A stretch of 64,000 bases of DNA from Candidatus Gastranaerophilales bacterium (GTDB lineage Bacteria > Cyanobacteriota > Vampirovibrionia > Gastranaerophilales > Gastranaerophilaceae): positions 1 through 64,000 of the forward strand of contig CANRHZ010000005.1 of the NCBI GenBank assembly GCA_947630535.1, in the 5' to 3' direction. Below are positions 16,563 through 26,836 of the stretch, one piece after another. The first letter of the stretch is position 1; every line of letters starts with the position of its first letter. Made by a program: the position numbers and the translations under genes. The notes beneath the pieces were generated by a model. That model was not told the origin of the DNA. It saw only the letters and a list, made by a program, of their open reading frames with translations, and made no database searches.

Positions 16563-16593
16563 GTAATTCAAATAATCAAACCAAGTGTCTTTT
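16563..16593. repeat. 31-bp border motif, copy 1
   Basis: GTAATTCAAAT.ATCAAACC and the following AAGTGTCTTTT recur at 31046-31076 with one mismatch. It marks the right edge of the DNA that split the recombinase: the recombinase frame runs into it and stops. TTTTGTATATTT at the left junction and TTTTGGTACATTT at the right junction look like a diverged target duplication. Confidence 0.6.
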
Positions 16594-17169
16594 GGTACAT
16601 TTATCATTATAGCTTTTGTATTGTTCTTGGTTTATATTACCATCAAGTTTTTCTTTAAAAAGATTTTCAATGCGTTTTTCTAAGATTGTTATTTGTTTTT
16701 GAATTTTAGACTTAACCTCTTTTGAATAACCGCTTTTTTTATAATGTAATTCTTTTAATTTATCCGTAATGTTTTTTCTAATTTCTAAAGGTATTATAAT
16801 GAGTTTTAAAACACTTGATACAGCTTTATCGATATCGGTTTCATTTATATAATCTCTTTTACAATCTCCGCCTTTGTTGCCGGTACAATGGTAATAAATA
16901 TACTTACCTTTCTTTAATTCCGTTGTTAAAAGATAGCCGCATCGTTCACATCTGATTAAACCAGTATATGTAAAATCAATATTATGTTTTTTTGTTTTAT
17001 TTGGGTCAATTAGTCTGTCTTGAACTCTATAAAACAATTCCTTACTTATAATTGGTGTATGTTTGGCATTTTCATACACTTTGCCTTCAAATTTAAAGGC
17101 TCCTGTGTAAAAAATATTCTTTAACATGTATTCAATGCTTGGCTTTGGAATTTTTATTGTCGTTAAAGT
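16576..17169 (-). pseudogene. Serine recombinase relic, central piece
   Basis: The frame carries the recombinase-domain signature (KIPKPSIEYMLKNIFYTGAFKFEGKVYENAKHTPIISKELFYRVQDRL) and then a zinc ribbon (GLIRCERCGYLLTTEL...YYHCTGN...C). A coiled coil starts next and is cut off at YNDKCTK. The N-terminal catalytic resolvase domain is absent: in-frame stops lie upstream of 17169. This relic of a large serine integrase is the only integrase remnant seen in the island. It can no longer work. Confidence 0.8.
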
Positions 17170-17333
17170 TTAAATCTGCTCCTGAATTTTTATTTTACCA
17201 AATTTTCTAAAATACCCATATCAGGACATTATCGCTATTCTTAAAATTGTAAATTTTTGTTAAAATTTGCCTTCTTTTTACTTGAAATTTTATAGCGTAA
17301 TAATAAAAACTATAGGGTATAGGAAACATATGG

Positions 17334-18142
17334 ATGCTTAAAAATTTTAGAACAATAAACGAAATTTTGCCGGAGGTTATTGAAGAAATAGAGAATAGTT
17401 ATTATGGTAATTTTTCTCATTTTAATAAAACCTATTATGAAAATTTGGATAAAAAAATTGGTGGATTAGATAGTGGTGAATTAATAACTATTGCAGGAGA
17501 AAAAGACAATTATTCCGGTTTATTTATGTTTAATATTGCAAAAAATTGTATTTTGAAAGGTAAAAAATCAATACTACTTTTAGATTTTGGCGCTCCCGAT
17601 AAATATATTGAGCTATTAGAAATTATTGAAATTAGTAAAACTCTAAATACAATCAAATTTCTATAATTAATCCGGTTGAATCAATATACGAAAAAATACA
17701 AAATTTTATAAAAATACATCCTGACGGAATGGTTTTTGTTAATGGTTTAGATCAAATATTTAACGATTGCAGATTTAGATTTGAATTTAAAGATAAACTT
17801 GAACCATTGGCAATAAATTTAAAAAATCTTGCAAGAAAAAATGGTATTCCAATTATTATTGCATTAAATTTATCCAGATCTCGGGGATATTTTAGAGATG
17901 GGCACGTTGAACTTTATGATTTTAATATTTATGATGCTTTCGCCTGTTATTCCGATAAGGTATTAACAACAAAATTATTTGATTATGATTCACAAGATTT
18001 GCGTAGAGATTTTGATGTTCAAATTGCAAAAAACAATAAAGGAAAAAATCACACTTTGTATTATAGTTTATATCAAGAAACCCAAAACATTGTAGAACGC
18101 AAATATAGCACTAGTGCTAAAAGAGCAATCGTCACTTTTTAA
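17334..18142 (+). pseudogene. Frameshifted DnaB/RecA-like ATPase relic
   Basis: Two frames together resemble the C-terminal ATPase of DnaB helicases. The first (17334-17666) reads LDKKIGGLDSGELITIAGEKDNYSGLFMFNIAKN. The second continues from about 17657, two frames over (ISIINPVESIYEKI...MVFVNGLDQIF...LAINLKNLARKNGIPIIIALNLSR...VQIAKNNKGKNHTLYYSL). The shift lies near the AAATTT at 17655-17660. The Walker A GxxxxGK[ST] has decayed to AGEKDNYSG, so the copy was probably inactive before the shift. It may come from a phage or plasmid replication gene. Confidence 0.65.
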
Positions 18143-18471: not shown

Positions 18472-19722
18472 ATGCTCGTAAAGTTTTCAGTACAAAATTT
18501 TTTATCATTTAAAGACTTGAACAGTCTTGAAATGGTTGCGGCTAATATTACTCAGCACGAAGAAAATACAACAAATACTAGTCAATACAAATTACTCAAA
18601 AGTTCTGCTATTTTTGGCGCTAATGCAAGTGGCAAAAGTAATTTATTTAAAGCAATGCAATTTGCAAGAGATTTTGTATTATTTTCATCTAAAGAAACAC
18701 AAGCCAATGAAAAAATCAATGTTACACCATTTTTACTATCTACAGAAACAGAAAATGAACCAAGTTTATTTGAATTTATTTTCTTGAAAGACAATATTAA
18801 ATATAGATATGGATTTAGATTAAACAATTCTGTTGTTGTTGATGAGTGGCTTTTTGTAGCTAGCAAGGTGAAAGAATCTTTATTATTTGAAAGACATGAA
18901 GACGATATTAAAGTTGGATCAAAATTTAAAGAAGGCTCTAAAATTGTTGAATTAACAAGAAAAAATGCTCTATTTTTATCTGTAGTTGCTCAATTTAACG
19001 GAAAAATCGCAGAATCAATTATTGAATGGTTTTATGGACTTAGAATAATTGCTGGTTTTCAAACATATAATCCTGTAACAATTGAATATTTAAAAGAGAT
19101 TGAGAATAAAAAAGAATTTATGGATATTTTAAATATTGCAGATTCTTCGATTCAAGATTTTCAGTTTAAAGAACGTGATCTTGAAAAAGCTCCTAAATAT
19201 ATAAAAGAAGAATTAGAAAAAATTAAAGCATTAGGTGCAAAATACGAGTTAATCCCTGAAATTAAAACTTATCATAATAAGTATAGTGATAAAAATAATG
19301 TTGCTGGAACAGTAGAGTTTGATTTTAATAAAAATGAATCAAAGGGAACTCAACATTTATTTTCATTAATTGGACCTATCCTAGATACTATTGAAAATGC
19401 CAATGTTCTTGTTATTGATGAATTGGAATGCAATTTGCATCCATTGATTTCACGTTTCATTATTAAATTATTTCATTTAAAAAACCAGAATGCTCAGTTT
19501 ATTTTTAATACTCACGATACAAACTTGTTGAGTAATAAATACTTTAGACGGGATCAAATCTATTTTGTAGATAAAGATAGGTATGGTTGTTCTAAATTAT
19601 ATTCTTTGTACGATTATAATATTAGATATGATAGAACTTTTAATAAAGACTATTTAGAAGGTAAGTATAAAGCAATTCCATTTATTGATGAATATGGGAT
19701 TTTAGGAAATGAAATAGAATAA
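18472..19722 (+). CDS. AAA15/ABC-type ATPase, RloA-like defence ATPase
   Basis: This 416-residue SMC/ABC-like ATPase belongs to the COG1106 type. The N-terminus MLVKFSVQNFLSFKDLNSLEM is the usual start. Walker A GANASGKS is at 49-56, the signature-like SKGTQHLFSLIG at 290-301, Walker B VLVIDELE at 312-319 and the switch NTHDTNLL at 346-353. It is paired, 15 bases apart, with an RloB-family gene. Such pairs occur in type I RM loci of Campylobacter and resemble the two-gene abortive-infection AbiL layout. A phage-sensing ATPase that licenses the partner's nuclease is inferred. Confidence 0.85.
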   Translation: MLVKFSVQNFLSFKDLNSLEMVAANITQHEENTTNTSQYKLLKSSAIFGANASGKSNLFKAMQFARDFVLFSSKETQANEKINVTPFLLSTETENEPSLFEFIFLKDNIKYRYGFRLNNSVVVDEWLFVASKVKESLLFERHEDDIKVGSKFKEGSKIVELTRKNALFLSVVAQFNGKIAESIIEWFYGLRIIAGFQTYNPVTIEYLKEIENKKEFMDILNIADSSIQDFQFKERDLEKAPKYIKEELEKIKALGAKYELIPEIKTYHNKYSDKNNVAGTVEFDFNKNESKGTQHLFSLIGPILDTIENANVLVIDELECNLHPLISRFIIKLFHLKNQNAQFIFNTHDTNLLSNKYFRRDQIYFVDKDRYGCSKLYSLYDYNIRYDRTFNKDYLEGKYKAIPFIDEYGILGNEIE

Positions 19723-19737
19723 AATTGGAGTTGCCGA

Positions 19738-20355
19738 ATGGGCACAGATGATTTATTTAAAAAAGCAAGAGAGAAAAGAGAAACAAGAAAAAGTCTAAAC
19801 AAGAATATTTTAGACAATATTCTCATATTATGCGAGGGCGAAAAAACTGAACCTAACTATTTCAATAGTATTAAACGCAAGTACAGGCTATTAAATGTTG
19901 ATATAAGAGGTTTAGGCTCAAATACCGATAAAATAACAGAAACTGCCATAAAAAATTACAAAGATTATTCTCAAGTATGGTGTGTATTTGATAGAGACTC
20001 TTTTGGTGCTCAGCATTTTAATAGAGCATTTCAAATGGTCAAAAAATATAAGAATATCAATATAGCATATTCAAATCAAGCATTTGAACTTTGGTATCTT
20101 CTGCATTTTAATTATTATAATACAGGGATTTCAAGAAAAAGATACTATGAGTTGCTTAGTAACTTATTAGGCAAAAAATACAAAAAAAATTCTACGGAAA
20201 TATATGAACTTATTTGCGAAAAAGAAGATACTGCCATAAAAAATGCAAAAAAACTTTTAAAATCATATTCTGAATGCAATCCGGAGAAAAACAACCCATC
20301 AACGACCGTTTTTAAATTAGTTGAAGAACTAAATAAGTATAAAGATGTATTTTAA
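19738..20355 (+). CDS. RloB-family protein with Toprim-like residues
   Basis: This protein of 205 residues begins with a basic segment (FKKAREKRETRKSLNK) and then ILILCEGEKTEPNYF, giving Glu33 in the position of a Toprim glutamate. VWCVFDRDSFG supplies Asp85-x-Asp87. C-terminal helices follow (ELWYLLHFNYYNTGISR, a family block). An ABC ATPase plus a Toprim nuclease is the logic of OLD/Gabija-like defences, so a nuclease effector controlled by the preceding ATPase is inferred. GGAG precedes the ATG. It ends the operon. Confidence 0.83.
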   Translation: MGTDDLFKKAREKRETRKSLNKNILDNILILCEGEKTEPNYFNSIKRKYRLLNVDIRGLGSNTDKITETAIKNYKDYSQVWCVFDRDSFGAQHFNRAFQMVKKYKNINIAYSNQAFELWYLLHFNYYNTGISRKRYYELLSNLLGKKYKKNSTEIYELICEKEDTAIKNAKKLLKSYSECNPEKNNPSTTVFKLVEELNKYKDVF

Positions 20356-21010: not shown

Positions 21011-22390
21011 TTAAAATAAATCTAATATGATTTTCTTAAGTTGCTCTTTTGTTTTCTGCTCATTATTTTCTTCAAAAATAAATGGCAATCTTACAAAATG
21101 TACATATGTATCACCTTTGTCGCTTTTGCTTATACCTGTTGGAAAAGATGGCTCTTTTTTTTCATATCTGTACATAGGGTATAGTAGAAATACATCTGTA
21201 ATATTTCGTTTTCTGGCATACTCACAAACTTGATAAATGTCTGTTTGTTTGGGTTCTTCACTTACTATTCGTTTAACTTCCTCTTTATTTCCCTGAAATC
21301 TTGAAACTTGTTTATATTTCGTATCAAGAATAAAAACTTTATCTTTGAATTCTACCAAAATATCATGTCGCATTGTGAACGCGGCCCCCAAAGAACAACC
21401 TTCAAAAATAATATCTTCAATCAAGTGCATTTGATTTTCTTGTAAATAAACTTTAGCTCCTTGTTCTGATAAGACTTCTTTAATAAACCCACCTATAAAA
21501 CCTTCAAACAGTAATTCTGTAGGAAACAAGAAACAAAAAGATTCATGAGAATCAAATGTATAATCAGACATCTTATTAAGTAAAAACATTTTACTCATAC
21601 TAATAATTATTTGATAATGTTTATGCATTTTACTTAATCGAATAGTATCGCAATCACTTGGCTTACAATTTATATCAGAGACCTCATCAAGCTTTGTTAG
21701 TATTCTTCTAATAATTTTTTGATTTTTTGTAGTTGTTTGATTTAGTAATTCCTTGCAAGTGTTTTTTATAATTCTGTTTACTTTATTATCAAATTCAAAA
21801 TTAGAATAAGAGCACCGAAATTTATTTAATTGACCACTTGATATTTTATTTATGAGATAATCTTTGGCATCAAATTTACCTTTAATACAATTTATATCAT
21901 TAGTTTCTTCAACATATTGAAAAAATAAACCGCGATTAAGAGCATTTTTAACATAGTTAATATACAATGTTATAAATAATTCTTTTAAATTTTCTGTATC
22001 GCTTAAAAAACTTGAAGTATTTATAAAAGGGTATTCTATTTTATTGCAATATTCTAACCATTTTACAAAATTGTTCATTAAATGATTTTGCGATAGATTA
22101 TCCGTACTTTGATCGTCCACATCTTCACGGAACATTTTAGGATAAATATTTAACTGCTCCCCTTTAAAGACAATAGTACCTATATAATTTTGTGTTTTAA
22201 TACCTTGTTGTCCTGTAAATGCCAAGAATTGTTGTTTACTATTAAGCTTTCCATCTTCATAGAAAACGGCTCTCTGCTCCCAATTTTGTTGCAGAAAATC
22301 TAGCAATTCATCCAATGATTGTTGAGAACGCCAAGAATCTGGTAATGCATTATTTTTTATTTGTGAATATTCATAATGATTCAGAATCAT
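21011..22390 (-). CDS. McrC-like restriction subunit (BsuMI YdjA / LlaJI R2-like)
   Basis: In this 459-residue protein the N-terminal part has the McrC-type block YIGTIVFKGEQLNIYPKMF. Near residues ~340-375 a PD-(D/E)xK nuclease centre is seen: MRHDILVEFKDKVFILDTKYK (Asp, then Asp-Thr-Lys). It overlaps the McrB-like gene by 20 bases, so the two are translated together. As last gene of an operon with two C5 methyltransferases, it is more likely the nuclease of a true RM system than a stand-alone methyl-dependent McrBC. Confidence 0.88.
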   Translation of the reverse strand: MILNHYEYSQIKNNALPDSWRSQQSLDELLDFLQQNWEQRAVFYEDGKLNSKQQFLAFTGQQGIKTQNYIGTIVFKGEQLNIYPKMFREDVDDQSTDNLSQNHLMNNFVKWLEYCNKIEYPFINTSSFLSDTENLKELFITLYINYVKNALNRGLFFQYVEETNDINCIKGKFDAKDYLINKISSGQLNKFRCSYSNFEFDNKVNRIIKNTCKELLNQTTTKNQKIIRRILTKLDEVSDINCKPSDCDTIRLSKMHKHYQIIISMSKMFLLNKMSDYTFDSHESFCFLFPTELLFEGFIGGFIKEVLSEQGAKVYLQENQMHLIEDIIFEGCSLGAAFTMRHDILVEFKDKVFILDTKYKQVSRFQGNKEEVKRIVSEEPKQTDIYQVCEYARKRNITDVFLLYPMYRYEKKEPSFPTGISKSDKGDTYVHFVRLPFIFEENNEQKTKEQLKKIILDLF

Positions 22391-23915
22391 TTTCAGCTTC
22401 CTTTACGTAAAGGCGAGAAATTTTATTATCACAAATTTTTATTGATAATCTTTCTAATACTTTGCTAAGAACATTTGCAACTTTTTTCTTATTATCATAG
22501 AAATATTCATATAGTAAAGGAATAATATTATTATTCAGTATTTCACACAAATCATTTTGTGTATGGTTGATAAAATAAGAATGTCCAATTAATAAATCTG
22601 TACTATCTAATTCTTCTGCTAAAATTTTATTTAATGATTCAAAAACATTTATAAGTGTAGCATCTGTAATCAAAGAAGAATCCGGGTGTTGCTCTATAAA
22701 TTTAAATCTTCTCCTTAAGGCAGCATCAATCAATGAGATAGATTTATCTGCAGAATTCATTGTACCTATAATATATAGATTATTTGGTATTGCAAATATA
22801 TCACCTGATGGCAATGTAACGCTCATTTCGTTAATTTCACCCCATCTTTTATCATCTTCAATAAGCGTTATGAGTTCACCAAAAACTTTTGAAATGTTTG
22901 CTCTGTTTATTTCATCAATTATAATTACATAAGGATTTTTATCATCAAACATTGCTCTATCTGAAATTTTTTTAAAGACGCCATCAATATGTTTTAAAGA
23001 AAATAAACCATTTTCAGACACAGGTCTCAAACCTTGCATAAAATCTTCGTAACTGTAGTTTTGATGGAATGTCGTAAATACAATACGCCCTTGCTTTATA
23101 TAATTGTTATAATTTTGCATTAATTGTTTTCTTGCTTCTGGTGTTTTGCGAGACAAGTCAACAGGTCGTTTTTCTAGAATTGATAATGCATATTCAGCAG
23201 TAGAATATGTTTTACCAGTTCCCGGGGCTCCATATAATATAAAATTAAGAGGATCTTTGCTCATTCTTGGTTGTCTTGTTGGTAACTCTTTTGCATATAT
23301 AACTTCTTGATCCATCTTTGTTGAAGACCCTATATTTTCATCTGCATCGTTATCGCTATATTTGTCAACACAAATTGAATAATCCTGTACACCATTATTA
23401 AAAGTGAAATCTAATAATGATTTCTTTATATATCCATCAGAAGCTCTTACTAAATGAATAGTTGTTCTTAGCACCCCAGGTCCATACCACTCTTTTACCG
23501 GATTGATTTTTGTCCAATTAACTTTTATATTTCTTCCATCATAAGAATTTTCAGTAACGATTCCAATTGCTTTTATGCTCATAGTTGAGACAACTTTACT
23601 ATTATTATCAAATGGAAGATTGTTTTTCTTTGTATAAGTTGCTTTTATTGCAATTTTATCACCAGGTTTTATTTTATTAACATCTTCTGTATAATATTCA
23701 GGAGCAGATAAATTTTCCCAACGACCTTCATTAATGTATTGCTCTGAAAAATCTTGCCAATTCCCTTCTGAATTGTTTCCTGTTGCACCAACGTACCAAG
23801 CATATTCAATATCTTGTATGTGGGAATCTGTTTCTGAATTGGCATTTCTACTTAAATTTAATAAATCTCCAATTTCATTATAACATTGTTCTATTTGATT
23901 TTGATTGTTTGTCAT
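22371..23915 (-). CDS. McrB-like AAA+ GTPase subunit
   Basis: This protein of 514 residues has an N-terminal half (about 38-185, YAWYVGATGN...INPGDKIAI-type blocks) that resembles a PUA/EVE-like DNA-reading domain. The motor follows: Walker A GAPGTGKT at 229-236, Walker B VIIIDEINRAN at 330-340 and the McrB GTPase mark MNSAD at 386-390, then DAALRRRF. In McrBC-type enzymes this ring powers translocation and activates the McrC nuclease. It overlaps McrC at the 3' end and lies one base from the 265-residue gene upstream, so the operon is tight. Confidence 0.9.
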   Translation of the reverse strand: MTNNQNQIEQCYNEIGDLLNLSRNANSETDSHIQDIEYAWYVGATGNNSEGNWQDFSEQYINEGRWENLSAPEYYTEDVNKIKPGDKIAIKATYTKKNNLPFDNNSKVVSTMSIKAIGIVTENSYDGRNIKVNWTKINPVKEWYGPGVLRTTIHLVRASDGYIKKSLLDFTFNNGVQDYSICVDKYSDNDADENIGSSTKMDQEVIYAKELPTRQPRMSKDPLNFILYGAPGTGKTYSTAEYALSILEKRPVDLSRKTPEARKQLMQNYNNYIKQGRIVFTTFHQNYSYEDFMQGLRPVSENGLFSLKHIDGVFKKISDRAMFDDKNPYVIIIDEINRANISKVFGELITLIEDDKRWGEINEMSVTLPSGDIFAIPNNLYIIGTMNSADKSISLIDAALRRRFKFIEQHPDSSLITDATLINVFESLNKILAEELDSTDLLIGHSYFINHTQNDLCEILNNNIIPLLYEYFYDNKKKVANVLSKVLERLSIKICDNKISRLYVKEAENDSESL

Positions 23916-23916
23916 A

Positions 23917-24714
23917 TTATTCCCCTATGAGTTTTTTTAATGAATCTCTTTTATTACTAACCATAGCATAATATTTATCTTGTTTTGCGATAAGTCCTGC
24001 TTGGGCCAATAAACTTACAAAATATCCATAAGAGGTTAGAAAGCTCAATCCTTCTTGTCTGTTTTTGCTACTTGTTCTTTGTTGAATTTCTATATCATTT
24101 CTAACTGTTACGGATGTTTCAATCTTTATTTCATTTGCTCTATATTTATGAATATTGTCTGCTATGGCATTTAAGCTCGTAAAAATGTCTGATCGTTGTT
24201 TTTCAAAAAGAAGATATGCATATTCTTCTTTACTAATCTTTTGAAATTTCAATAAAAATTGAATCATATCCTGAAATGGTTCAACATAATTTAAACCATT
24301 CGTATTAACAATATTTAAAAGTGCACCATAAACAATATTTTGTAAGAATTCATTTAATTTGTTTTCGGAAGCAATTACTTGATCTCTTGTATATTTGGGA
24401 TCTTGTTTTATAAGATTTAAGAATTCCAATGTTTTTACATATGCTAAGCCGGTATTTGTATAAAATTTATCTACTAAAATTTCTCCACCTTTTTCATATT
24501 GCACAAGTCTGCCATTTCTTAACAAAGGGAAGATATTTCTATTATTGTTATCGTTTATTTCTTTATCATTTTCTAAACGTTTACGAAATTCTTTAAATGA
24601 AATATTTAATCCCGGATGTTCCTTAATCCATTCATAAATCTTTAATAATACTGAATTTGTATTATCTGTAAAACTTGCGCCTGGCGACGAGGTATTAAAT
24701 ATTTTTATTTGCAT
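23917..24714 (-). CDS. Unknown restriction-operon protein (BsuMI YdiR position)
   Basis: This 265-residue protein has no catalytic motif that I recognise. The N-terminus is a helical, winged-helix-like segment (YEWIKEHPGLNISFKEFRKRLEN...). The middle is helical (FLQNIVYGALLNIVN, FLLKFQKISKEEYAYLLF). The end looks like another small winged helix (FLTSYGYFVSLLAQAGLIAKQDKYYAMV). Its place between two C5 methyltransferases and McrB/McrC matches ydiR in the BsuMI order ydiO-ydiP-ydiR-ydiS-ydjA. A DNA-recognition or adaptor role is inferred from position only. Confidence 0.6.
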   Translation of the reverse strand: MQIKIFNTSSPGASFTDNTNSVLLKIYEWIKEHPGLNISFKEFRKRLENDKEINDNNNRNIFPLLRNGRLVQYEKGGEILVDKFYTNTGLAYVKTLEFLNLIKQDPKYTRDQVIASENKLNEFLQNIVYGALLNIVNTNGLNYVEPFQDMIQFLLKFQKISKEEYAYLLFEKQRSDIFTSLNAIADNIHKYRANEIKIETSVTVRNDIEIQQRTSSKNRQEGLSFLTSYGYFVSLLAQAGLIAKQDKYYAMVSNKRDSLKKLIGE

Positions 24715-24717
24715 ACA

Positions 24718-25770
24718 TTAATCTCCTAGTTGTTTTTGGATTTCTTTTGCAATTTCATAAGCTAATTTAGGTGGTACAGCATTTCCAACTTGTTTATATT
24801 GGCTTGTTTTAGTTCCGAGGAATTCAAAATTATCAGGAAAAGATTGTAATCTAGCATTTTCACGAACAGTCGGTATTCGATTTTGTTTATAATGAAAATA
24901 GTTTCTGTGCCCTGTATCAACGGTATTTGATGGCAATCTACTGTTCATACGTTCAAAAGCTTTATTATATCGTCTAATATTCCAGTATTCAGGAGGTAAA
25001 TCTTTAATTTTTCCGCCATCCTTAATCATATTTATAATTTTAACAGTTTGTTCAGTATGAATTGTAAAATCATGATTATATAAGGTTTTTGAATCTCCTC
25101 GAATCTCTTTTTGATACGTAGTTTGAGGTTTATTACAATACTTTTGAATAGAAATATGTTCTTCCGTACCATCAAATTGTGGCAGATCAGATATTGCATC
25201 ACTGGAAGAAACAGGATGTTCAGATGTTTGTCCTATTGGAAATTCAAACTTATTATTTTTCATTCCTATAAATAGAACTCTGCACCTGTTTTGAGGAACG
25301 CCATAATCCGCAGCATTAACAATTTTATAATTAACTTTGTATCCAATATTGCCAAAACGATTTATTATATCATTTTTAAACATACCCTTATTTAAAGTAG
25401 TTAAACCTTTTACATTTTCTATTAAGAAAAAATCAGGTTGTATAGTTTCAACAACTCTACAGAATTCTAAATATAAATGGTTTCTTGGATCATTTATATC
25501 TCTAGTTCCAACTGTACTATAACCTTGGCATGGTGGTCCGCCAATAACACCCACAATATTTTGAGATTTTTTTAAATCCTTCAAAAAATCAGATGTTAAA
25601 TTCTTTATATCTTCACACTTACCAACTTTATTCTTATGATTATGATTGTACGTTGTTATAGCATCTTTCCAAAAATCTATAGCCAATGCAATATCAAACC
25701 CTGCTTGTTCAAAGCCAATGCTTAATCCACCACAACCACAAAACAAATCAATAATCTTATTTTTCTTCAT
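24718..25770 (-). CDS. DNA (cytosine-5-)-methyltransferase, second of pair
   Basis: This 350-residue C5 methyltransferase has motif I IDLFCGCGGLSIGFEQAGF, a motif IV nucleophile at Cys81 in GGPPCQGYS, motif VI FLIENVKG, and C-terminal motifs IX-X (RLPSNTVDTG, RENARLQSFPD, QVGNAVPPKLA). It methylates cytosine in the site cut by the linked restriction proteins. It is closely similar in layout to the upstream paralogue, overlaps it by 14 bases and lies 3 bases from the next gene. Two C5 enzymes suit an asymmetric site (as in LlaJI) or a two-component modification (BsuMI). Confidence 0.94.
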   Translation of the reverse strand: MKKNKIIDLFCGCGGLSIGFEQAGFDIALAIDFWKDAITTYNHNHKNKVGKCEDIKNLTSDFLKDLKKSQNIVGVIGGPPCQGYSTVGTRDINDPRNHLYLEFCRVVETIQPDFFLIENVKGLTTLNKGMFKNDIINRFGNIGYKVNYKIVNAADYGVPQNRCRVLFIGMKNNKFEFPIGQTSEHPVSSSDAISDLPQFDGTEEHISIQKYCNKPQTTYQKEIRGDSKTLYNHDFTIHTEQTVKIINMIKDGGKIKDLPPEYWNIRRYNKAFERMNSRLPSNTVDTGHRNYFHYKQNRIPTVRENARLQSFPDNFEFLGTKTSQYKQVGNAVPPKLAYEIAKEIQKQLGD

Positions 25771-26836
25771 CTATAGCCTCCAATATCGCCGTTGCTACTG
25801 CTTTCGCTAACAATGGAGGTACTGCATTTCCAACCTGACGATATTGGGCACTTCTTGTCCCTTGAAAAACAAAATTATCTTTAAAAGATTGTATTCTTGC
25901 AGCTTCTCTTACCGTAGGAATTCTATTATATATAGGGTGGAAATAATTACTATGGGCATTACCCGTATCTATGGTAACTGAAACATCATTTTCCTTTAAT
26001 CTTTTATATGCAGAAGAATGTCTATTATTTCTTTGATTCTTAAATAATTCTTTTGGAATACTTGTCCAATTTTCACCTTGTTTTACATAAGAAATTCTTT
26101 TCTGAACAATTTCGGCAGGATATTTAATTTCATGATTTTTAACAATATTGTCTTTATCCCTTAAATATCTTCTATAGGAAGTGATAGGGTTGCTCTTTAG
26201 AGTATAATTTGTATCTTTAATATTTTTATCAAAAATATAAAGTTCACCTATTGCATCTTCAACAGTTACAATATTTTTTTTGTGCATAATATCAAATGAA
26301 AAATTAAAGCCCTTTGTTATTACAAAAAAGTTTCTTAATCTTCTTTGAGGGACTCCATAATCAGAAGCATCTAAAATTTTATGCGTTACCTTATAGCCTT
26401 TAGATTCAAATATTTCATATATTTTATTTTTTGCATACCCATTATCACGAGTTACAATCCCCGGGACATTTTCAATTACAATAACTTTCGGTTGTGCTGC
26501 ATCAACAAATTTTACAAATTCATAAAATAACTTATTTCTTGGATCTTCACCACTTTGATACCTGTTAGCAGAAGAAAAACCTTGGCAGGGTGGTCCCCCT
26601 ATAATAACATCAACATCCGAGATTTTACCGAAGTAATTTTTTATTTTTTCAAAACCTATATCCAATAAATCACAACATATTCCTTTTGCATCTTTAAAAT
26701 TATAATTAAAAGTGTCTATTGCGGCTTGATTAAAATCAATTCCGCCAATGATTTGGTATCCTGCTTGCTCAAACCCTGAACTTAATCCCCCACATCCACA
26801 AAATAAATCTAATACTTTTAGCCTTTTCTTATTCAT
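25757..26836 (-). CDS. DNA (cytosine-5-)-methyltransferase, first of pair
   Basis: This 359-residue protein is the first gene of the five-gene RM operon. Motif I is VLDLFCGCGGLSSGFEQAGY, the catalytic Cys84 lies in GGPPCQGFSS, motif VI is IVIENVPG, and the target-recognition region (~215-285) differs most from its paralogue. The end carries REAARIQSFKD and YRQVGNAVPPLLA. GGAG lies ahead of the ATG. Being transcribed before the nuclease genes lets host DNA be protected first. Confidence 0.94.
   Translation of the reverse strand: MNKKRLKVLDLFCGCGGLSSGFEQAGYQIIGGIDFNQAAIDTFNYNFKDAKGICCDLLDIGFEKIKNYFGKISDVDVIIGGPPCQGFSSANRYQSGEDPRNKLFYEFVKFVDAAQPKVIVIENVPGIVTRDNGYAKNKIYEIFESKGYKVTHKILDASDYGVPQRRLRNFFVITKGFNFSFDIMHKKNIVTVEDAIGELYIFDKNIKDTNYTLKSNPITSYRRYLRDKDNIVKNHEIKYPAEIVQKRISYVKQGENWTSIPKELFKNQRNNRHSSAYKRLKENDVSVTIDTGNAHSNYFHPIYNRIPTVREAARIQSFKDNFVFQGTRSAQYRQVGNAVPPLLAKAVATAILEAIDEEK

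What the first reader, a model, noticed from the sequence alone, without database searches (positions are those of the whole stretch)
21011..26836. BsuMI/LlaJI-like operon rather than stand-alone McrBC
Two C5 methyltransferases, an unknown protein, then McrB- and McrC-like proteins in one overlapping operon repeat the order of BsuMI (ydiO-ydiP-ydiR-ydiS-ydjA) and resemble LlaJI. A normal McrBC would attack the host's own 5mC; here the McrBC-like motor probably cuts unmodified sites. Naming these genes 'McrBC' would mislead. The 265-residue protein is the least understood part.
Basis: partly seen in the sequence, partly recalled or inferred. Interest (0 to 1): 0.6.

Follow-up and report, generated by a model that had tools for sequence, protein, structure and literature searches.

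The report
Restriction system with an extra sensor
A gut bacterium carries a five-gene DNA-defence system that probably marks its own DNA with two methylating enzymes, finds unmarked DNA with a separate recognition protein, and cuts it with a motor-driven nuclease that also carries a domain of the kind used to sense chemically modified DNA, a mixture that known systems normally keep apart.

Summary
The operon is real: two C5 methyltransferases, a 265-aa protein (X), McrB-like and McrC-like proteins on the minus strand, 26836-21011. (1) X has homologues in four other cassettes, always beside related methyltransferases but with different motors (McrBC-type or LlaJI-type). Its predicted fold best matches recognition domains of the site-specific enzymes BpuJI and Nt.BspD6I. 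X is most likely the sequence-recognition subunit, supplied in trans. (2) The McrB is not the bare motor of BsuMI: it carries an EVE/YTH-type domain, the modified-base reader fold of Type IV enzymes, which the closest cassettes (L096, L091) lack. A second cassette pair (L134 with, L128 without) shows the same difference. The two methyltransferase-linked EVE domains share WYGxGxLR where 23 of 25 readable relatives have WYF or WFF; no C5 methyltransferase was detected beside 25 of 25 other loci searched. Most likely X directs cleavage of unmodified sites and the EVE domain is an accessory sensor. Cleavage polarity and the EVE role are inferred, not shown. New variant of a known kind.

The parts
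25757..26836 (-). M1: C5-cytosine DNA methyltransferase, 359 aa
   Evidence: PF00145 1.5e-71; 62-64% identical to M1 of L096, L091, L173
24718..25770 (-). M2: C5-cytosine DNA methyltransferase, 350 aa; its target-recognition region has diverged more than the rest of the protein
   Evidence: PF00145 1.2e-80; recognition region 44-46% against 66-70% for motifs I-VIII relative to L096/L091/L173
23917..24714 (-). X: 265-aa protein, predicted tandem winged-helix recognition subunit acting in trans
   Evidence: homologues in L096, L091, L173 and L221; AlphaFold2 pLDDT 75.8, pTM 0.71; best fold matches BpuJI recognition domain (VIA Z 9.0-9.2, 197-198 residues) and Nt.BspD6I (Z 7.8-8.4)
22371..23915 (-). 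McrB-like protein, 514 aa: EVE/YTH domain plus AAA+ motor
   Evidence: AAA_5 2.2e-18; Walker A GAPGTGKT, Walker B IIIDEIN, signature MNSAD
23388..23807 (-). EVE/YTH-type domain, McrB residues about 37-176
   Evidence: AlphaFold2 pLDDT 83.0, pTM 0.76; Foldseek 1wmm E 6.3e-4 prob 1.00; top VIA rows EVE and YTH entries, 2p5d Z 9.2, VcaM4I 6yex Z 8.6
23448..23489 (-). Variant motif WYGPGVLRTTIHLV (McrB residues 143-156); WYF or WFF followed by TxR and T(I/V)W in most relatives
22446..23264 (-). AAA+ motor domain, McrB residues about 218-490
   Evidence: 65-66% identical to the AAA of L096 and L091
21011..22390 (-). McrC-like nuclease subunit, long form, 459 aa; RHD...DTK residues of the PD-(D/E)xK centre present
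   Evidence: PF10117 1.7e-57; 71% to L096 and 65% to L091; alignment

Best explanation
A restriction-modification system with a McrBC-type engine and two recognition parts. M1 and M2 methylate cytosines, probably one strand each of an asymmetric site. X, a tandem winged-helix protein of the BpuJI/Nt.BspD6I recognition-domain kind, binds the same site when it is unmethylated and loads the McrB AAA+ ring with the McrC nuclease, which translocates and cuts. X therefore does in trans what the N-terminal half of R1.LlaJI does in cis. The McrB also has an EVE/YTH-type domain that is not needed for the basic scheme, because sister cassettes lack it; it most likely acts as an accessory reader of modified bases. 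Shown here: gene content, conservation, association of X with the methyltransferases across different motors, the predicted folds, and presence or absence of the EVE domain in sister cassettes. Inferred: site binding by X, cleavage of unmodified DNA, and the EVE function.
For: X homologues lie between M2 and the motor in L096 and L091 (long McrC motor) and in L173, whose AAA and nuclease match PADLOC REase_II models (585-aa model PDLC03547 at 1.3e-121, best stretch from model position 260 on; PDLC03549 at 1.2e-140) and PF09563 RE_LlaJI at 4.7e-32; L221 has a fifth X beside a 56% M2-like enzyme and a weak AAA_5 match. So X (261 aa in L173) stands where the N-terminal half of R1.LlaJI (585 aa) would be, and R1.LlaJI is the experimentally assigned specificity subunit (PMC1459862). 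Conversely L090, L092, L093, L094 and L095 keep the same motor (AAA 59-67%, McrC 53-66%) with other methyltransferases, no detectable X, and McrB fusions of 608-935 aa. Fold of X. M2 recognition region and X are both unusually diverged in the window (X 23-29% against 38-55% within the sister group). EVE fold. EVE presence and absence in two cassette pairs: window against L096/L091 and L134 against L128.
Against: No activity data. The X model rests on five sequences; Foldseek E is 9.0e-3 at best with query TM about 0.35 and rmsd near 16 over the whole chain; Z 9 is modest and winged helices are common. X is not universal with these methyltransferases: L129 and L174, with 55-58% identical M1/M2, have no X match and AAA proteins with N-terminal parts of their own. 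M1's recognition region shows no excess divergence (57-62% against 61-64%), so co-divergence of X with methyltransferase specificity is only half supported. The EVE-type profile against Pfam-EVE sequences gave only a weak profile match (probability 4.5-11.8%), and no Pfam family was reported for the domain.
Confidence: 0.62

Rival explanations
1. Plain BsuMI/LlaJI-like R-M system in which the EVE-type domain is degenerate: it no longer reads any base and only supports assembly or non-specific DNA binding.
For: The loop before the last strand, which in most relatives is WYF/WFF-TxR, is WYGPGVLR here; sister cassettes exist without the domain.
Against: The rest of the domain is strongly conserved (57% to L134; many family-invariant residues kept), crude dN/dS for McrB residues 1-136 is 0.059 (only 5 differences), and the same variant recurs in the second methyltransferase-linked cassette.
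Confidence: 0.22
2. A modification-dependent (Type IV) enzyme: the EVE domain selects modified DNA, the methyltransferases belong to a separate protective or epigenetic function, and X is a regulator.
For: EVE-type McrBs are found as stand-alone McrBC, 0 of 25 searched loci with a C5 methyltransferase hit in the fetched flank; X has winged-helix elements seen in transcription regulators.
Against: M1, M2, X, motor and McrC stay together in L096 and L091, which lack the EVE domain; X aligns over 198 residues with restriction-enzyme recognition domains, against about 65-86 residues for most single winged-helix rows.
Confidence: 0.1
3. The cassette is not functional in this genome (a decaying import in a defence island).
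For: L059, 97% identical in X, has a frameshifted McrB; a recombinase remnant and short DnaB-like ORFs lie nearby.
Against: All five frames are open in the window with intact catalytic motifs and low dN/dS; the L059 break is in one short metagenome contig and may be an assembly error.
Confidence: 0.06

Closest known systems
BsuMI (Bacillus subtilis; two methyltransferases plus a three-ORF restriction cassette) and LlaI
   Same: A separate third restriction protein beside McrB- and McrC-like proteins; PMC1459862 describes three-ORF restriction cassettes for both. The gene order of BsuMI is from the finding and recall.
   Different: BsuMIB and LlaIB are 343 and 337 aa; here McrB is 514 aa with an EVE-type domain. 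YdiR could not be compared.
LlaJI (Lactococcus pNP40), R1/R2
   Same: Two 5mC methyltransferases and a McrB-like plus nuclease pair; restricts unmethylated DNA (PMC1459862); L173 pairs an X homologue with a LlaJI-type motor that lacks the R1 N-terminal half.
   Different: LlaJI has specificity fused in R1 (a B3 domain in the H. pylori relative, as told in PMC12707154 and PMC7680126 passages); here it is predicted to be a separate winged-helix protein, the nuclease is McrC-like (PF10117), and an EVE-type domain is present.
PcaI (PMC8989522, passages read)
   Same: McrBC-like REase with a Dcm-like methyltransferase, restricting unmethylated DNA.
   Different: One methyltransferase; no X and no EVE domain described in the passages read.
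EVE-McrB Type IV systems (PMC7641849, PMC11090510, passages read) and TgMcrB (YTH)
   Same: EVE/YTH-type domain in front of a McrB AAA+ domain.
   Different: The related loci examined here had no detected C5 methyltransferase and mostly a short McrC. PMC11090510 does mention McrBC associated with DNA methyltransferases and defers them to a later paper.
BpuJI and Nt.BspD6I recognition domains
   Same: Predicted fold of X.
   Different: There the domain is fused to the nuclease (recalled); here it is free-standing. About 13% identity.

Membership tests
BsuMI/LlaI-type three-ORF R-M cassette | Two C5 methyltransferases (BsuMI) with three restriction ORFs in one operon | tested here: met
   also L096 and L091
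BsuMI/LlaI-type three-ORF R-M cassette | McrB-like subunit without an N-terminal domain (337-343 aa) | tested here: not met
   514 aa with EVE/YTH-type domain
BsuMI/LlaI-type three-ORF R-M cassette | Third protein homologous to YdiR | not testable with these tools
   no way found to fetch B. subtilis YdiR; the one scan of genome contigs returned only L059
LlaJI family | RE_LlaJI nuclease (PF09563) | tested here: not met
   nuclease is PF10117 McrBC; the LlaJI-type nuclease is in L173 and L174
LlaJI family | Restriction of unmethylated DNA at the site methylated by both methyltransferases | not testable with these tools
   needs wet-lab work
Type IV McrBC | No cognate methyltransferase | tested here: not met
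   two C5 methyltransferases in the same operon
Type IV McrBC | Modified-base reader domain on McrB | tested here: met
   by fold only: EVE/YTH rows; base binding not tested
EVE/YTH domain superfamily | EVE/YTH fold | tested here: met
   Foldseek 1wmm E 6.3e-4; VIA Z 9.2-8.6 for EVE entries
EVE/YTH domain superfamily | Sequence match to Pfam EVE | tested here: inconclusive
   no Pfam match reported; weak profile-profile match
Type IIS recognition-domain fold (BpuJI/Nt.BspD6I) | Tandem winged-helix recognition fold | tested here: inconclusive
   best matches, Z 9.2, 198 residues, rmsd 4.7, above the next unrelated rows at 7.5 and below, but Foldseek E only 9.0e-3

The most novel reading that the evidence does not exclude
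One motor-nuclease with two independent triggers: X detects unmethylated copies of the host site, and the EVE-type domain, retuned in the loop WYGxGxLR so that the host's own 5mC is ignored, detects other modified bases (for example 5hmC of phages that hide their DNA from X). The system would be Type II and Type IV at once, closing the escape route that DNA modification gives to phages. The alternative within this reading is that the EVE domain reads the host mark and vetoes cleavage.
Probability: 0.3. Interest if true: 0.78.

Novelty: new variant of a known kind. Interest (0 to 1): 0.6.

Why it matters
How three-gene McrBC-like restriction cassettes choose their targets is unclear in the text read: LlaJI has specificity in R1, but the role of the extra ORF of BsuMI and LlaI is not assigned there. 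Here natural exchanges (X kept while the motor changes; motor kept while methyltransferases and N-terminal module change) point to a separate, swappable recognition protein. If right, the motor is a modular platform whose specificity could be read from one small gene. The co-occurrence of self-marking 5mC methyltransferases with a modified-base reader fold on the same motor raises a sharp, testable question: what stops it attacking its host, or is reading the host mark its purpose.

Tried and rejected
Stand-alone McrBC: rejected, the methyltransferases are in the same operon and the arrangement recurs. Bare BsuMI copy: rejected for McrB (EVE domain). X as a HNH or TFIIE-beta protein: only sub-threshold matches (E 0.0068 and 0.0061). 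Searches that gave no X homologue: plasmids, phages, viral contigs with X alone, 287 other genomes of a 288-genome family sample and 385 other genomes of a 386-genome phylum sample, PHROGs and PADLOC for the X proteins tested. Sequence profiles of X and of the EVE domain against PDB sequences: no relevant match. LlaJI itself was not recognised among the plasmid hits listed. Promoter scan: 58 sites against 47.1 (sd 7.8) expected, not informative. That the role of YdiR is not in print was not established: the searches 'BsuMI restriction' and YdiR/YdiS/YdjA only show little in the open library. The variant loop was suspected to lie at the base pocket (VcaM4I Y130/Q128, PMC7897488 passages) but no residue-level structural alignment was available; this remains inference. 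My first impression (no EVE-McrB with C5 methyltransferases) had to be revised when L134 turned up.
Full report
OBSERVATION. The five genes are present as described, on the minus strand, in one tightly packed operon: M1 and M2 overlap by 14 bases, M2 and X are 3 bases apart, X and McrB 1 base apart, and McrB and McrC overlap by 20 bases. Pfam and NCBIfam support two C5 methyltransferases, an AAA+ McrB-like motor and a PF10117 McrC-like protein; X had only sub-threshold matches. The G+C content of the operon is 0.29 against 0.33 for the flanks. The genome has 1.85 Mb in 72 contigs. A nearly identical cassette (M2 94%, X 97%, McrC 97% in protein; M1 is beyond the contig end) lies on a contig labelled Candidatus Gastranaerophilales (L059), so the host is probably of that gut lineage; no name was given for the window's own genome.

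RELATIVES OF X. X is rare: only the own genome matched among 288 genomes of the family sample and 386 of the phylum sample, and plasmids and phages gave none. The way in was the motor. A scan of viral contigs with a McrB AAA alignment kept 80 of 100 confirmed stretches. Among them L096 and L091 have M1, M2, X, McrB and McrC in the same order as the window. Identities to the window are 62-65% for M1 and M2, 65-66% for the AAA, 65-71% for McrC, but only 23-28% for X. L173, found with M2, has M1 and M2 at 62-63%, X at 29%, but a different motor: an AAA protein whose best match to a 585-aa REase_II model starts at model position 260, and a PF09563 LlaJI nuclease. A last scan with an M1 alignment (80 of 557 confirmed stretches kept) gave 25 of 80 loci with some motor, X or EVE match and one further X (L221, profile E 2e-13), beside a 56% M2-like enzyme and a weakly matching AAA protein. 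Thus X is kept across at least two clearly different motors.

THE CONVERSE. L090, L092, L093, L094 and L095 have the window's motor (AAA 59-67%, long McrC 53-66%), other C5 methyltransferases (mostly 26-34% in the matches listed, up to 46% in short pieces), no X by tblastn or profile, and McrB proteins of 608-935 aa, that is with large N-terminal fusions. L097 is cut short and gave no methyltransferase match. The simplest reading is that target recognition is either fused to the motor or supplied by X. Against a strict rule, L129 and L174 have M1/M2 at 55-58% to the window without X; their AAA proteins have N-terminal parts of their own.

FOLD OF X. AlphaFold2 on five sequences gave pLDDT 75.8 and pTM 0.71, with winged-helix-like elements at both ends. 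The four best Foldseek rows and the four best VIA rows are the BpuJI recognition domain (E 9.0e-3 to 4.2e-2; Z 9.0-9.2, 197-198 residues, rmsd 4.7-4.8); next come Nt.BspD6I entries (Z 7.8-8.4); then mostly single winged-helix proteins over about 65-86 residues (Z 7.5 and lower). That BpuJI recognises an asymmetric site is recalled. The match is moderate: E is above 0.001 and query TM about 0.35.

THE McrB N-TERMINAL DOMAIN. McrB residues about 37-176 match McrBs on 14 plasmid records, 14 viral loci and three other genomes of 386 in the phylum. AlphaFold2 on 16 sequences gave pLDDT 83.0 and pTM 0.76. The only Foldseek match under 0.001 is PH1033 (1wmm, E 6.3e-4, probability 1.00). The VIA rows are led by 2p5d (Z 9.2), 1wmm (8.7), 2hd9 (8.6) and the 5mC/5hmC-dependent enzyme VcaM4I (6yex, 8.6, 108 residues, 3.0 A), followed by YTH domains at 6.6-7.5 and other EVE-type entries (that the untitled structural-genomics entries are EVE proteins is in part recalled). 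So the fold is that of modified-base readers. A profile comparison with 20 Pfam-EVE sequences was collinear but weak.

WHERE THE EVE DOMAIN OCCURS. In 25 loci with this domain, searched with M1 and M2 at E 1e-3 or better, none had a C5 methyltransferase in the fetched flanks, which are a few kb and shorter where contigs end. L134, found later, is the exception: two PF00145 enzymes, a 635-aa McrB with the EVE domain closest to the window's (57%), and a short McrC. L128 has related methyltransferases (45.5 and 44.5%), a related N-terminal module (25%, 3.6e-9) and an AAA, but no EVE domain between them. So two cassette types exist each with and without the domain; it behaves as an insertable module. 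Of 27 loci examined, L072 and L121 are the same contig and L063 does not cover the motif, leaving 25 readable: 23 read WYF or WFF, L071 is aberrant, and L134 reads WYGDGILR, like the window's WYGPGVLR. Because L134 and the window are close relatives in this domain, this may be one ancestral change, not two. A further scan for this subtype found only L134's contig again.

SPECIFICITY HINTS. In M2 the recognition region is 44-46% identical to the sister group while motifs I-VIII are 66-70%; within the sister group both are 75-80%. X is 23-29% against 38-55% within the group. M1 shows no such excess. This fits a changed target in the window lineage, read by X and M2, but only in part.

RECENT HISTORY. 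Between window and L059, crude synonymous differences per site are about 0.31 in M2, 0.06 in X, 0.05 in McrB 1-136, 0.24 in McrB 150-514 and 0.08 in McrC (from counts), a mosaic that suggests recombination inside the cassette.

LITERATURE. PMC1459862 (abstract, Results part 1, Discussion read): LlaJI restricts unmethylated DNA, R1 alone binds the site, BsuMI and LlaI have three restriction ORFs. PMC11779793 (passages): deletion of two LlaJI-like restriction genes in C. cellulovorans raised conjugation of plasmid without host methylation tenfold. PMC8989522 (passages): PcaI. [quoted passage not shown] this is the published precedent for the dual reading. PMC11090510 (passages): McrBC associated with DNA methyltransferases, deferred to later work. 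PMC7897488 (passages): the VcaM4I pocket. PMC12707154, PMC7680126, PMC3990576 (passages). Ohshima 2002 and Hosford 2018 were not held.

VERDICT. A McrBC-motor restriction-modification system with a trans-acting recognition protein and an added EVE/YTH-type domain; a new variant of the BsuMI/LlaJI kind. The recognition role of X is well supported by context and moderately by fold. The role of the EVE domain is open, and is the most interesting question.

Noticed in passing
L042:3394-8511 and L106:728-5843: Cassette of a roughly 250-aa LAGLIDADG_3-like protein, McrB without N-terminal domain, McrC, an N6/N4-type methyltransferase and a C5 methyltransferase; looks like another trans-recognition cassette using a homing-endonuclease-like fold.
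   Followed up: partly
L090:8297-10231, L091:8282-10171, L134:5652-7544: A protein of about 630-644 aa follows McrC in three cassettes; two have HTH-type matches and weak M78-like matches. Absent from the window.
   Followed up: partly
window 18472-20355: AAA_21 ATPase plus RloB pair (AbiL-like by PADLOC) directly beside the operon; an ATP-binding protein plus RloB pair also lies next to a McrBC pair on a Spirosoma plasmid (L057:9511-11621).
   Followed up: no
window 16576-18142: Serine-recombinase remnant and two consecutive short ORFs, the first with a weak DnaB_C match; perhaps remains of a mobile element beside the defence genes.
   Followed up: no
L059:1855-3397: McrB frame broken by a 2-base difference relative to the window; natural or an assembly error.
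   Followed up: partly
G000:C30:11128-12312 (L003): A third C5 methyltransferase elsewhere in the genome.
   Followed up: no
L036 and L065: Some EVE-type McrBs carry a further N-terminal module, MrcB_N or Mrr_N.
   Followed up: no
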